Source of the DNA: an uncultured Elusimicrobiales bacterium
GTDB lineage: Bacteria; Elusimicrobiota; Elusimicrobia; Elusimicrobiales; Elusimicrobiaceae
Direction of reading: 5' to 3'
Length of the DNA: 64,000 bases
NCBI GenBank assembly: GCA_944325225.1
Contig: CALUZQ010000005.1
Coordinates: 1-64,000 of the forward strand
Made by a program: the position numbers and the translations under genes. The notes beneath the pieces are model-generated. The model saw only the letters and a list, made by a program, of their open reading frames with translations, did no database searches and was not told where the DNA came from. Numbering within the stretch: the stretch's first letter is position 1; each line of letters begins with the position of its first letter. Shown piece after piece: positions 38-46,933 of this stretch.

Positions 38-65
38 TTGATTTGTTTTTTTTTTTTGATAAATT
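38..65 (+). promoter_or_regulatory. Putative promoter/leader of pilin cassette 1 with 12-T tract
   Basis: TTGATT (38-43), a 16-base spacer holding 12 consecutive T (46-57), then TAAATT (60-65), six bases before the ATG at 72. The same arrangement precedes the other three pilin genes of the window. No Shine-Dalgarno is visible, so the mRNA would be leaderless if the promoter is read correctly. The -10 matches the consensus at only 4 of 6 positions. Sequence further upstream is cut by the window edge. Confidence 0.5.
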
Positions 66-4516: not shown

Positions 4517-4669
4517 ATGGTAAATATTCAGTATGGAGAATTTATAAACAAAGGGTTTACATTATAGAATTATTGGTATTTTAGTGTCTGTTTCTATTCC
4601 TTGTTCCTCGCTTGTTAGCGGGGGTTTTATTTTTAGGGGAGCAAATAAATCCGCCTAGCGGCAAGTATG

Positions 4670-5239
4670 TTAATAAATATCCGGGCTGTCTTTGAAAGGG
4701 CCGTAGCGCTTTGCGTCCCGGGTCTGTTTTATAAAATGCTCCAAAGTTTTTTTGTATAGTGCGGGGCGGTTCATCCGGCGGATTATATAATCCAGACGTA
4801 TGCGCTGATAATGCGGGGGAAATGCGCAAAAGTGCTTCCAAACCAGCATATCTTTTTTAAGCTCTTGTAACAGAAGGGGAGGAATAACAAATGTATTTGG
4901 GGTTAGATCTGGCAGTGTTTTTAACCCGGCAGGGGTCATCATTCCTTTATTTAGTGCCAAACGAGCAAGATGTTTATTTAATCCACTCCAAGAACTGGCA
5001 GCGGAACGAGGAGTCCAGCGTTGACAGGAAAATGTTTCGTCAAACTTGCGTCGCTGTCCGTCGATCCATCCGAAACAACTTGCTTCTTGCACAGCGTCAG
5101 CGTATGCTATGCTGGGCAAATGGGTGTCTTTATGTGGATAGAGAAGCCAGACCTCTTTTTTATTTTGATGATTTTGGCTAAGCCATAAACGACAGTCTTC
5201 TTTTGTATGGGGGTAAAATGTTTCCGTAATTGGAGGCAT
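4670..5239 (-). CDS. YdeI/OmpD-associated family protein
   Basis: 189 residues, cytoplasmic, no signal peptide. The central CFGWIDGQRRKFDE, the segment QRWTPR...SSWSGLNK and MTPAGL are the conserved core of the YdeI family, whose biochemical role is unclear (described as bacteriocin-protection or OmpD-associated). The C-terminal stretch with IRLDYIIRR and KKTLEHFIKQ is the usual helical tail. It is a single-gene unit convergent with dnaK, with its own consensus promoter 6 bases before the ATG. No toxin or bacteriocin gene lies beside it, so the family name says little about function here. Confidence 0.8.
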   Translation of the reverse strand: MPPITETFYPHTKEDCRLWLSQNHQNKKEVWLLYPHKDTHLPSIAYADAVQEASCFGWIDGQRRKFDETFSCQRWTPRSAASSWSGLNKHLARLALNKGMMTPAGLKTLPDLTPNTFVIPPLLLQELKKDMLVWKHFCAFPPHYQRIRLDYIIRRMNRPALYKKTLEHFIKQTRDAKRYGPFKDSPDIY

Positions 5240-11283: not shown

Positions 11284-11310
11284 GGTACTTTTCCCGACGG
11301 GAAAAGTACC
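11284..11310. repeat. Perfect 12-bp inverted repeat
   Basis: GGTACTTTTCCC (11284-11295), GAC, then its exact reverse complement (11299-11310). No T-run follows on either strand, so it is not an ordinary terminator. It lies at the upstream edge of the repeat region before pilin cassette 2. I did not see another copy in the window. Confidence 0.7.
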
Positions 11311-11350
11311 AAAAAGAGTGCGTCCTAGTTTTGGGCCGGCGTGCCCACAT

Positions 11351-11400
11351 TTGTAGGAATATTCCCAACAAGTTGTTCCTCTAATGCGTAAGCGTCGTAA
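11351..11400 (+). repeat. Repeat module A, copy 1 (upstream of pilin cassette 2)
   Basis: 50-base module, matched by 46283-46332 with about six differences. It contains ATTCCCAACAAGTTGTT and CTAATGCGTAAGC. Here it precedes module B; near cassette 4 the order is reversed. No convincing gene is present on either strand. Confidence 0.8.
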
Positions 11401-11442
11401 GAAACGAAACCTTGTTGAAGGCAGAATTCCCAGGCCTGGAAG

Positions 11443-11528
11443 GCCGTTGCGCAAGGGCGCGACATTTCCGAAACAGTGTGGCTCCGCTAATCGTGTTAAC
11501 GGGTAAAGGAAAGGGGAGGGGCGGCTCG
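11443..11528 (+). repeat. Repeat module B, copy 1 (upstream of pilin cassette 2)
   Basis: 86-base module, matched without gaps by 46194-46279 with four differences. It begins GCCGTTGCGCAAGGGCGCGA and ends GGGGCGGCTCG. Its second half is recognisably related to the 75-base tandem repeat before cassette 3. Its last bases form a hairpin (GGGGCG-GCT-CGCCCC, 11518-11532) abutting the pilin promoter. Confidence 0.85.
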
Positions 11529-11532
11529 CCCC

Positions 11533-11556
11533 TTGACTCGTTTTTTTTGATAAATT
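11533..11556 (+). promoter_or_regulatory. Putative promoter/leader of pilin cassette 2 with shortened 8-T tract
   Basis: TTGACT (11533-11538), CG, eight T (11541-11548), GA, TAAATT (11551-11556), six bases before the ATG. The spacer is 12 bases, against 16 in the other three pilin cassettes, too short for a working sigma70 promoter. If the promoter reading is right, this copy should be off. Confidence 0.5.
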
Positions 11557-11562
11557 TTGCGT

Positions 11563-12078
11563 ATGAACAAAATCTATCAAAAAATATTCCCCGGCGAAAA
11601 AAACGCCGGATTTATGCTCATAGAGCTATTAGTGGTCGTTTTAATTATAGGCATATTGGCAGCAGTAGCGTTCCCGCAATATGAGAAAGCGGTGATGAAG
11701 AGCCGCATGAATAGCATTTTCCCATTGCTTAAAAGTATCAAAGACGCCCAGGAAGTGTATTATCTGGCCAATGGAGCATATACAAATGATTTAACAAAAT
11801 TAGATGTTCGTATTCCCCAAGAAGATTTAGAATCTAATCCTTCTAGCGGAATTACAACTTTCCGTAATGGGACATGGATTGATAGCTTTTTTGCTCAAAA
11901 TGAGAAATCTGGATGGAATTTACATGGGGGAATTGGAGATTATTTTGGGGGAGGAGATAATATCTGCTATTTTACAATCTATTTAGATCATTCAAGTTTG
12001 CCAGGTTTGATAAGGTGCTATGGAAATCATTCTCAATGTCCCTCCATTTGCAAGACATTTGATTTTGTAACGCAATAA
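11563..12078 (+). CDS. Type IV pilin-like protein (cassette 2)
   Basis: 171 residues. The leader (about 14 residues) and alpha1 helix closely match the other cassettes, but the mature N terminus reads GFMLIELL: Thr at +2 is replaced by Met, with Glu at +5 kept. The C-terminal domain diverges from the others (NICYFTIYLDH, RCYGNHSQCPSICKTF) and holds four Cys. The coding sequence is visibly more AT-rich than the flanking housekeeping genes. It lies alone between pth and tlyA, flanked by repeat modules and a bidirectional terminator. With its short T tract it may be a silent copy. Confidence 0.83.
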   Translation: MNKIYQKIFPGEKNAGFMLIELLVVVLIIGILAAVAFPQYEKAVMKSRMNSIFPLLKSIKDAQEVYYLANGAYTNDLTKLDVRIPQEDLESNPSSGITTFRNGTWIDSFFAQNEKSGWNLHGGIGDYFGGGDNICYFTIYLDHSSLPGLIRCYGNHSQCPSICKTFDFVTQ

Positions 12079-19715: not shown

Positions 19716-19767
19716 AATGGGTACAAACGATACGCGGGATAAAGCTCTGGCACAGGGTCGTTGCGAC

Positions 19768-19931
19768 AGAGTGCAACATTGCACCAACCGTGTGGCTTAA
19801 ACCAATCGTGCTGACGGGATTAGAGTGGGGAGGGGCGGCTCGCTGGTTGTTTTGTAAGAGTGCAACATTGCACCAACCGTGTAGCTTAAACCAATCGTGC
19901 TGACGGGGTTAGAGTGGGGAGGGGCGGCTCG
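19768..19931 (+). repeat. Tandem 75-base direct repeat upstream of pilin cassette 3
   Basis: Copies at 19768-19842 and 19857-19931 (period 89 bases) differ at two positions. Each contains the palindrome GTGCAACATTGCAC and ends in GGGGAGGGGCGGCTCG. The second half is a diverged relative of module B near cassettes 2 and 4. The downstream copy runs into a hairpin (GGGGCG-GCT-CGCCCC, 19921-19935) that abuts the pilin promoter. No gene is present in 19716-19969. Confidence 0.9.
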
Positions 19932-19935
19932 CCCC

Positions 19936-19963
19936 TTGACTCGTTTTTTTTTTTTGATAAATT
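19936..19963 (+). promoter_or_regulatory. Putative promoter/leader of pilin cassette 3 with 12-T tract
   Basis: TTGACT (19936-19941), CG, 12 T (19944-19955), GA, TAAATT (19958-19963), six bases before the ATG. Spacer is 16 bases, as in cassettes 1 and 4. Confidence 0.5.
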
Positions 19964-19969
19964 TTGCGT

Positions 19970-20512
19970 ATGAACAAAATCTATCAAAAATCATTCTCCG
20001 ATGGAAAAAATGCCGGATTTACGCTTATAGAGCTATTAGTAGTCGTTTTAATCATTGGTATTTTGGCGGCAGTGGCACTGCCGCAGTATGAGGTGGTAGT
20101 GGGGAAAAGCAAGGTGGCACAAATGCAGCAGCTGTGCCGATCGATGAAAGAGGCCGCGGAGGTGTATTATTTAGCCAATGGGGATTATGGCTGGACGCAC
20201 GGGCATACCCAAGGAGAACACTTGGATATTTCATTCCCGCCGGGCTGTAACAGCAATCCCAATGACGGGAGTGTTTATTGCGGGGATATTTCTTTTATTT
20301 TAAATCAAGGGTCAGAAGTCCAAAACTGTACGGCAGTGTATCAAAAGGGCCGCATTTGGCTGTCTTACAGTCACTATTTTGATCACAGTCCTTCCCGCCC
20401 CGGGCAGCGCACCTGCCAAGCGGTAGCAGGGGATTTTTATCCGCTTTCCAAGAGGGTATGTAAAAGCATTGGCGGCAACGAAGAGAGTTCCAATTTCTTC
20501 GTGCTTCCTTAA
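19970..20512 (+). CDS. Type IV pilin-like protein (cassette 3)
   Basis: 180 residues. The leader MNKIYQKSFSDGKNA is followed by GFTLIELL (Glu+5) and the hydrophobic helix shared with the other cassettes. A conserved segment AAEVYYLANGDY precedes the variable domain. That domain has about six Cys and ends in GQRTCQAVAG...KRVCKSIGG, matching cassette 1 more than 2 or 4. The first 100-odd bases of the gene are far better conserved between cassettes than the rest. It is monocistronic, between the pheT operon terminator and a convergent thioesterase gene. Confidence 0.85.
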   Translation: MNKIYQKSFSDGKNAGFTLIELLVVVLIIGILAAVALPQYEVVVGKSKVAQMQQLCRSMKEAAEVYYLANGDYGWTHGHTQGEHLDISFPPGCNSNPNDGSVYCGDISFILNQGSEVQNCTAVYQKGRIWLSYSHYFDHSPSRPGQRTCQAVAGDFYPLSKRVCKSIGGNEESSNFFVLP

Positions 20513-46193: not shown

Positions 46194-46279
46194 GCCGTTG
46201 CGCAAGGGCGCGACATTTCCGAAACACTGTGGCTCCGCTAATTGTGTTAACGGGAAAAGGAAAGGGGAGAGGCGGCTCG
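46194..46279 (+). repeat. Repeat module B, copy 2 (upstream of pilin cassette 4)
   Basis: 86 bases, four differences from 11443-11528, no gaps. Here it comes before module A, the reverse of the order near cassette 2. Confidence 0.85.
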
Positions 46280-46282
46280 TTT

Positions 46283-46332
46283 TTGTAGTAACATTCCCAA
46301 CAAGTTGTTTCCCTAATGCGTAAGCACCGTAA
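46283..46332 (+). repeat. Repeat module A, copy 2 (upstream of pilin cassette 4)
   Basis: 50 bases, about six differences from 11351-11400. It follows module B after three bases; 48 more bases lead to the pilin promoter, including the hairpin CCCCC-GGCAA-GGGGG (46366-46380). Confidence 0.8.
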
Positions 46333-46380
46333 TTGGCAACCCCTTGGCCGTGGCCAAACTGCCTGCCCCCGGCAAGGGGG

Positions 46381-46408
46381 TTGACTCGTTTTTTTTTTTT
46401 GATAAATT
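46381..46408 (+). promoter_or_regulatory. Putative promoter/leader of pilin cassette 4 with 12-T tract
   Basis: TTGACT (46381-46386), CG, 12 T (46389-46400), GA, TAAATT (46403-46408), six bases before the ATG. Hairpin directly upstream. Spacer 16 bases. Confidence 0.5.
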
Positions 46409-46414
46409 TTGCGT

Positions 46415-46933
46415 ATGAGCAAAAAATATCAAAAATCATTCCTCGGTGTTAAAAACGCCGGATTTACGCTAATAGAGTTATTAGTGGTCGTTTTAATTAT
46501 TGGCATATTGGCGGCGGTAGCGCTGCCACAGTATGAAAAAGTTGTATGGAAAAGCAGAGCCGCTAATATCAAAATATTGCTGCAAGGGTTAGTAGAAGCC
46601 CAGGAAGTTTATCGCTTGGCAAATGGAAGTTATGCTACAGATGTGAAAGATTTAGATTGGGAATTTCCTCAAGAAGGACCTTTTCAGACTAGTATTTCTA
46701 ATGATAACTATTCGCTTACTTTCTCTAATATTTTTTTTAACGAAGGTCCTTATAGCGGAAGCGGTTTTACTTATGTGCATATGAGTCGTGCACTGAATGT
46801 TAAAAATTGTATTGTCTGTGTGGAGAATACTTTTAAAACGGGGGATTTTTGTCAGAAATTATTTTCAGGCACCTTAATCAGAAATGTTTATGGTAAGCGA
46901 TATTTTTTATTGCCAGAAGAAACTTGCTCGTAA
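46415..46933 (+). CDS. Type IV pilin-like protein (cassette 4)
   Basis: 172 residues. Leader MSKKYQKSFLGVKNA, then GFTLIELL with Glu+5 and the shared hydrophobic helix. After the conserved AQEVYRLANGSYATDVKDLDWEFP the sequence is unlike the other cassettes (NVKNCIVCVENTFKTGDFCQKL), again with several Cys (at least four). Composition is more AT-rich than lepA or folD next door. It stands alone between folD and lepA with its own promoter-like leader and a terminator. Confidence 0.85.
   Translation: MSKKYQKSFLGVKNAGFTLIELLVVVLIIGILAAVALPQYEKVVWKSRAANIKILLQGLVEAQEVYRLANGSYATDVKDLDWEFPQEGPFQTSISNDNYSLTFSNIFFNEGPYSGSGFTYVHMSRALNVKNCIVCVENTFKTGDFCQKLFSGTLIRNVYGKRYFLLPEETCS

What the first reader, a model, noticed from the sequence alone, without database searches (positions are those of the whole stretch)
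11351..11528. Repeat modules A and B in swapped order upstream of two pilin genes
At 11351-11528 the order is A (50 bases) then B (86 bases). At 46194-46332 it is B then A, with four to six substitutions per module and no gaps. Shuffled order with preserved identity suggests rearrangement by recombination, not simple duplication of a pilin locus. The modules have no credible gene; antisense frames through them are open but low complexity.
Basis: seen in the sequence. Interest (0 to 1): 0.7.

Follow-up and report, generated by a model that had tools for sequence, protein, structure and literature searches.

The report
Shared switch cassette for pilin genes
The two repeats are upstream parts of one standard promoter cassette carried by about fifty pilin genes in a gut bacterium (phylum Elusimicrobiota); its run of about twelve T's inside the promoter looks like a slippery on/off switch for each pilus protein.

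Summary
In detail: A matches over 51 nt with 6 mismatches, B over 86 nt with 4, in opposite order. The pair is not special. A (~93 nt) and B (~82 nt) occur dozens of times in this 1.6-Mb Elusimicrobiota genome as head-to-tail arrays (A-B, B-A, A-B-A-B, B-B). "Swapped order" is a difference of register in a mostly alternating array. Of 57 arrays, 50 abut one promoter core, TTGAYTYG-T(n)-GATA(A/C)A, 6 run off contigs, and 1 precedes a long pilin without it. The core drives ~50 "class I" type IV pilins, a secreted-protein family and a few other pilins, and occurs in related genomes.

Class I genes look leaderless: no Shine-Dalgarno sequence (0 of 50, against 24 of 24 other pilins), and the ATG lies 14 nt after the G of GATA in 130 of 132 genes. 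The -10/start region forms an inverted repeat that constrains leader codons. The spacer is poly-T, usually T12 (151 of 221), range 7-14. In one cross-MAG pair the only difference in 926 nt is T9 versus T12.

Best reading: a family-wide, probably phase-variable, leaderless pilin expression cassette, working like Bordetella fim promoters. A and B are conserved upstream elements, probably regulator-binding sites. Switching and binding are inferred.

The parts
11350..11442 (+). module A (reported place), 93 nt
   Evidence: HMM hit E=2e-21
11446..11526 (+). module B (reported place)
   Evidence: HMM hit E=1e-15
11518..11532 (+). GC hairpin GGGGCGGCTCGCCCC abutting the -35
   Evidence: sequence; conserved by two-sided changes in B copies; enriched over shuffles
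11533..11556 (+). promoter core: TTGACT -35, T8 spacer (11541-11548), GATAAATT with -10 read as TAAATT (11551-11556)
11549..11578 (+). inverted repeat GATAAATTTTG / CAAAATCTATC around the start codon
11563..12078 (+). class I type IV pilin gene, leaderless type
46197..46277 (+). module B (second place)
   Evidence: HMM hit E=8e-13
46282..46369 (+). module A (second place), other 3' version
   Evidence: HMM hit E=2e-21
46366..46380 (+). GC hairpin CCCCCGGCAAGGGGG abutting the -35
   Evidence: sequence
46381..46408 (+). promoter core with T12 spacer (46389-46400)
46415..46933 (+). class I type IV pilin gene
19760..19840 (+). module B, distal copy of a B-B array
19848..19929 (+). module B, promoter-proximal copy
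19936..19963 (+). promoter core with T12 spacer (19944-19955)
19970..20512 (+). class I type IV pilin gene
38..65 (+). promoter core with T12 spacer (46-57); no room for modules at the contig start
72..590 (+). class I type IV pilin gene

Best explanation
A and B are upstream elements of a standard expression cassette repeated across the genome. Order: A/B array; a short GC hairpin (often); -35 TTGAYT; YG + poly-T (mode T12) + GA spacer; -10 TA(A/C)ANT; six nucleotides; ATG. Transcription most likely starts at or next to the A of ATG, so class I pilin mRNAs are leaderless. The 5' codons form a DNA inverted repeat with the -10 region, probably an operator. The T tract sets the -35/-10 spacing (T12 = 16 nt, near the sigma70 optimum; T8 = 12 nt, probably off), so slippage would switch each pilin independently. 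A and B are probably binding sites for a shared activator or nucleoid protein, and also give homology by which arrays expand, contract and convert. Shown here: the repeat anatomy, the promoter link, the absence of Shine-Dalgarno, the fixed ATG spacing, codon-level constraint, tract-length differences. Inferred: start site, switching, protein binding.
For: 50 of 57 arrays abut the core; 6 more run off contigs. SD 0/50 class I vs 24/24 class II. ATG offset 14 in 130/132 class I genes; inverted repeat at least 9 of 11 in 43/46 own and 86/86 relatives; Gln6 CAA 131/132 and Tyr5 TAT 128/128, against 238:200 and 558:137 in pilin bodies. Tract lengths T12 151/221, rest 7-14, 3 interrupted. L123 vs L164: 926 nt, 0 substitutions, only T9 vs T12 (1026 nt). 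Tandem copies in L144: T12 vs T10. The two reported loci carry T8 and T12. Core with GATAAATT in 9 of 24 other same-genus genomes, 0 of 16 of another family. Module conservation profiles agree across species (Spearman 0.57 A, 0.69 B). Precedents: B. pertussis fim3 poly(C) -35/-10 spacing (PMC10172299, passages), H. pylori sabA poly-T (PMC2715451, passages).
Against: No transcript or protein data. Tract length is strongly peaked at T12: equal in 11 of 16 pairs at 93% identity or more, and in the neighbouring L123/L164 promoter pair, 99.5% identical, T12 in both. This fits purifying selection with modest slippage as well as switching. Homopolymer assembly errors in MAGs cannot be excluded. Seven class I genes with more than 1.3 kb of upstream sequence have no module, so A/B are not required for the promoter. 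No regulator was identified. The -10 match to TATAAT is only 4 of 6. Runs of 9 or more of one base are not more numerous in the window than in shuffles (3 against about 2.6).
Confidence: 0.6

Rival explanations
1. The T tract and hairpins form a transcription attenuator: RNA starts upstream in the modules, the GC hairpin plus U tract terminates, and the AU-rich start-codon hairpin blocks translation of read-through RNA.
For: GC hairpin directly before the -35 in 21/31 own and 59/108 relative class I promoters, against about 10% in shuffles, with two-sided changes. The start-codon hairpin folds well, z -2.5 and -4.0.
Against: The core persists without modules, without hairpins in many relatives including an Endomicrobiaceae MAG (L140), and with SD-containing leaders behind it. 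Eight bases separate the hairpin from the T run. A and B have almost no consensus RNA fold (-1.6 and -5.5 kcal/mol).
Confidence: 0.2
2. The start-codon inverted repeat (11-bp arms, 8-bp centre) is a site-specific recombination site through which a tyrosine recombinase exchanges upstream arrays between pilin genes.
For: Geometry like known tyrosine-recombinase core sites (recalled). Upstream arrays and gene bodies are nearly decoupled. Arrays differ at the same site between species.
Against: Every locus has its own complete promoter, so exchange is not needed for expression. The repeat overlaps the -10 and start codon and is imperfect in most own copies, 36/46 with 10 of 11. No recombinase was sought.
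Confidence: 0.08
3. A and B are passive repeats (remnants of duplicated pilin 5' regions kept similar by gene conversion) with no regulatory role; only the promoter core matters.
For: Some class I genes lack modules. The B copies most alike in the window lie within one array or one contig. RNA structure is nearly absent.
Against: Columns conserved at 90% or more: 41/98 in A and 26/88 in B, against 2.9 and 0.5 expected if homogeneous, and the same columns are conserved in relatives. 50/57 arrays sit directly at a promoter core.
Confidence: 0.25
4. Neisseria-like antigenic variation: silent pilin copies donate sequence to one expression locus by gene conversion.
For: About 50 pilins share nearly identical N-terminal segments and upstream DNA but have divergent bodies (median identity 0.28).
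Against: Class I genes have their own promoter and start codon; silent, promoterless copies are not the rule. No single expression locus is seen.
Confidence: 0.07

Closest known systems
Bordetella pertussis fim2/fim3 promoters (poly(C) -35/-10 spacer, BvgA sites upstream)
   Same: Pilus-subunit genes scattered in the genome; homopolymer in the promoter spacer; regulator bound next to it (PMC10172299, passages read)
   Different: T instead of C; about 50 genes rather than a few; leaderless starts; repeat-array upstream elements; no regulator known; switching not shown
Helicobacter pylori sabA promoter poly-T tract
   Same: Homopolymeric T tract in a surface-protein promoter; one length predominates in a strain (68% of 26695 clones were T15) (PMC2715451, passages read)
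   Different: A single adhesin gene whose effect of tract length was then open; not a regulon
Neisseria meningitidis nspA promoter poly-A tract
   Same: Tract length next to the -10 sets expression (PMC6389960, passages read)
   Different: 5 vs 6 A; single outer-membrane protein gene; has an RBS
Neisseria pilE/pilS pilin antigenic variation
   Same: Conserved pilin N-terminus with hypervariable body and C-terminal cysteine pair (recalled for Neisseria; here)
   Different: Here each copy has its own promoter and start
Leaderless genes of bacteria
   Same: No SD, ATG six nucleotides behind the -10 hexamer
   Different: Seen here for one paralogous pilin family (plus a few other pilins in relatives); start region is also an inverted repeat

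Membership tests
Type IV pilin / type IV filament superfamily | Prepilin N-methylation motif GFxxxE and hydrophobic helix | tested here: met
   TIGR02532: 79 hits in the genome, all over cut-off. PF07963 in the four window pilins, one (11563) just under the cut-off, 20 vs 21.2 bits
Type IV pilin / type IV filament superfamily | Pilin fold with C-terminal cysteine pair | tested here: inconclusive
   Model pLDDT 87, long N-terminal helix plus strands; C152 and C163 invariant in 76 rows; best PDB match is gonococcal pilin 5vxx but E 0.057, TM 0.39
Homopolymer-spacer phase-variable promoter | Homopolymer between -35 and -10 | tested here: met
   44 core matches in own genome; T12 in 151/221 unique promoters
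Homopolymer-spacer phase-variable promoter | Tract length varies between otherwise identical alleles | tested here: inconclusive
   One cross-MAG pair T9/T12 with no substitution, one tandem pair T12/T10; 11 of 16 close pairs equal
Homopolymer-spacer phase-variable promoter | Tract length changes expression, reversibly | not testable with these tools
   No expression data
Leaderless genes | No SD and -10 directly before the start codon | tested here: met
   0/50 SD; fixed offset in 130/132
Leaderless genes | Transcript starts at the start codon | not testable with these tools
   Needs 5'-end mapping
Structured RNA / riboswitch leader | Rfam match or covarying fold in A or B | tested here: not met
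   Only two tRNAs in the window; weak consensus folds apart from the terminal hairpin
Neisseria pilE/pilS type variation | Promoterless silent copies and one expression locus | tested here: not met
   Class I copies not cut by a contig end have the core or a one-or-two-base variant and a start codon (ATT in one)
Site-specific recombinase switch | Dedicated recombinase and exchanged junctions | not tested

The most novel reading that the evidence does not exclude
Elusimicrobiota carry a dispersed pilin-diversification system: in genomes like this one about 50-60 leaderless pilin genes with hypervariable bodies, plus secreted proteins with constant N-terminal and variable C-terminal halves, are each controlled by their own slippery poly-T promoter. 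They share upstream repeat elements and a start-codon operator, so a population displays combinatorial pilus repertoires under one master regulator.
Probability: 0.4. Interest if true: 0.82.

Novelty: new variant of a known kind. Interest (0 to 1): 0.6.

Why it matters
It explains an odd repeat as the upstream part of a promoter class shared by a large pilin family, in a phylum with little experimental work. If the tract switches, it would be a very large set of spacer-switched pilin genes in one small genome, and it can be tested directly by counting T-tract lengths in existing metagenome reads. It also gives a clear case where leader-peptide codons are held by a DNA element rather than by the peptide. 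Searches for earlier descriptions listed nothing on it by title and abstract start; the E. minutum genome paper (recalled, not held) may mention many pilin genes.

Tried and rejected
Rfam scan for a known RNA (none but tRNAs). Consensus RNA folds of A and B (negligible except the terminal hairpin). Reading A/B as coding: no family for the antisense frame; by eye the sense frames are broken by stops in many copies. GATAMA as -10 was dropped because its spacing from TTGAYT would be 14 nt; TAMANT at 16 nt fits both gene types. A sigma28-like factor was considered because of GATAA: four sigma70-region-2 proteins were found; of the three examined, one is RpoS/RpoD-like and two are ECF-like, with nothing to link any to this promoter. 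Structure of the secreted protein failed (pLDDT 32) and no Pfam or NCBIfam family fits it. Genome-wide module counts are lower bounds: each whole-genome DNA search scored only 40 of 57-73 candidates. Class assignment used a regular expression; one 'class II' entry (C1_17) is a truncated gene at a contig start. The 7-nt tracts at C44 and C52 are cut by contig ends. In one search a start-codon choice error spoiled the repeat count, redone. One search's tract-length table failed (no pattern match), redone. A sequence-only covariance model of B was built and not used.

Full report
OBSERVATION. The reported repeats are real and far above chance: A 6 mismatches in 51, B 4 in 86, no gaps, against best shuffled matches of 29/51 and 47/86 in 20 shuffles. 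The order is A-B at 11350-11526 and B-A at 46197-46369.

WHERE THE MODULES OCCUR. Searching the window's own genome (G000, 1.625 Mb, 55 contigs; window = contig C5) gave 48, 52 and 47 matches for three upstream queries (lower bounds, 40 candidates scored each). From stretches fetched around these and around pilin hits I built profiles. A (~93 nt) has 51 hits, 48 near full length; B (~82 nt) has 91 hits, 69 near full length. Modules lie head to tail in arrays; neighbouring pairs are AB 26, BA 24, BB 19, AA 1. Two opposite orders are therefore two registers of a mostly alternating array. In the two reported loci the B copies are closest relatives (95%) but the A copies are not, so a swap between these two loci is not what happened.

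WHAT FOLLOWS THEM. Of 57 array groups, 34 end at a class I pilin, 6 at a secreted-protein gene and 2 at long pilins; 15 reach a contig end. A promoter core directly follows in 50 of 57: all 34, all 6, 1 of 2, and 9 of the 15 at contig ends. The core is TTGAYTYG-T(n)-GATA(A/C)A. Its stricter form ending GATAAATT has 44 exact matches in the genome and 0 for the reversed control. It is found in 9 of 24 other genomes of the genus and 0 of 16 of another family. In 78 of 102 core matches in loci L089-L178 a pilin motif lies within 700 nt. The seven-site pattern with GATACAGTGGGG marks the secreted-protein type; two of those seven have no module directly upstream.

THE PILINS. The genome has 79 GFxxxE hits over cut-off. 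In fetched stretches I saw 75 pilin starts: 50 class I (leader M-N/S-K-x-YQK-x-FPG-x-KNA) and 25 others. Class I bodies differ strongly (median identity 0.28 beyond residue 45, 22 genes) while the first ~45 residues are nearly constant and two C-terminal cysteines are invariant in 76 aligned proteins. The model of the 11563 pilin has the long N-terminal helix and strands (pLDDT 87); its best PDB match, gonococcal pilin, is weak. The secreted family also has a conserved N-terminal half and divergent C-terminal halves in three of four aligned members, the fourth being distant.

PROMOTER AND START. Class I genes have no Shine-Dalgarno sequence (0 of 50; other pilins 24 of 24). The ATG lies 14 nt after the G of GATA in 46/46 own (one of them reads ATT) and 84/86 related genes. 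Reading the -10 as TA(A/C)ANT gives a spacer of 16 nt with T12 and puts +1 at the A of ATG (inference). The sequence GATAAATTTTG is mirrored after the ATG by CAAAATTTATC: 11 of 11 in 63/86 relatives, at least 9 of 11 in all 86 and in 43/46 own genes. Leader codons are fixed at DNA level: CAA for Gln6 in 131/132, TAT for all 128 Tyr5, while pilin bodies of relatives use CAA:CAG 238:200 and TAT:TAC 558:137. Folded as RNA it gives a hairpin with AUG in the loop, z -2.5 and -4.0. If the mRNA is leaderless the 5' arm is not transcribed, so I favour an operator over an RNA switch (inference).

T TRACT. The window's only runs of 9 or more of one base are three T12 tracts, all in class I promoters; the fourth, at the reported locus, has T8. 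The number of such runs is not above shuffled expectation (about 2.6); their place is what stands out. In 221 unique promoters from own and related genomes: T12 151, T11 24, T10 18, T13 8, T9 8, T8 6, T14 2, T7 1, 3 interrupted. A pair from two MAGs (BRZ_KS bin69 and BRZ_FT bin58) is identical over 926 nt except T9 against T12; tandem copies in L144 differ T12/T10 with one substitution and one other indel. Against this, 11 of 16 pairs at 93% identity or more have equal tracts (pairs not independent), and the next promoter in the same two MAGs is T12 in both. Phase variation is therefore plausible but not shown.

MODULE FUNCTION. Conservation is concentrated: 41/98 columns of A and 26/88 of B reach 90%, against 2.9 and 0.5 if homogeneous (relatedness ignored), and the profile agrees with modules of relatives (65 A, 127 B; Spearman 0.57 and 0.69; 76 of 77 core columns have the same consensus). 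This argues for constrained sites, most simply protein-binding sites upstream of the promoter. A short GC hairpin of changing sequence sits next to the -35 in 21/31 own and 59/108 related class I promoters, about 10% in shuffles; its role is open. At fixed chromosomal sites arrays differ between species: behind pth A-B (own), B-B (G007), A-B-A-B (G012), another pilin type in G024; before folD B-A in own and G007 (30 of the 40 genomes with a match were fetched as loci per site).

COMPARISON. It works most like Bordetella fim promoters, where poly(C) length sets -35/-10 spacing and a regulator binds next to it (PMC10172299, passages), with sabA (PMC2715451, passages) and nspA (PMC6389960, passages) as further precedents. 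It differs in scale, in leaderless starts, in the start-codon inverted repeat and in the repeat-built upstream region. Two Endomicrobia papers mention pilins only briefly (PMC8809381, PMC11257099, passages).

VERDICT. Observation confirmed; interpretation partly supported; new variant of a known kind.

Noticed in passing
window 11285-11309: Perfect palindrome GTACTTTTCCCGACGGGAAAAGTAC just upstream of module A; similar palindromes lie in a ~400-590-nt repeated segment (mostly 83-97% identical) inserted in five arrays (C1, C3, C12, C16, C27).
   Followed up: partly
window 4520-4900: Degenerate pilin remnant: N-methylation motif in broken frames (NKGFTL* in one frame, IIGILVSVSIP in another).
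   Followed up: partly
L013:8912-9982, L025:1284-2414, L070:2027-3007: Secreted family without Pfam or NCBIfam match: conserved N-terminal half, variable cysteine-rich C-terminal half; uses the same promoter core with a GGGGATT...AATCCCC leader hairpin and an SD.
   Followed up: partly
own genome contig ends (for example C7, C18, C22, C25, C29-C31, C33, C35, C40, C43, C44, C52): Many contigs end inside or beside a class I pilin or its modules, so the true number of copies is probably higher and MAG binning may miss some.
   Followed up: no
L140:5020-5046: The same promoter core, T13, with an SD leader in an Endomicrobiaceae MAG, suggesting the core is older than the family.
   Followed up: no
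C23_16582 (in L012) and L228: Class I genes whose ATG is changed (ATT, CTG), leaving an in-frame TTG six nucleotides upstream.
   Followed up: no
G001-G004, G011, G015 and other same-genus genomes: No match to the strict core, although pilin genes are present at some shared sites; they may use another promoter form.
   Followed up: no
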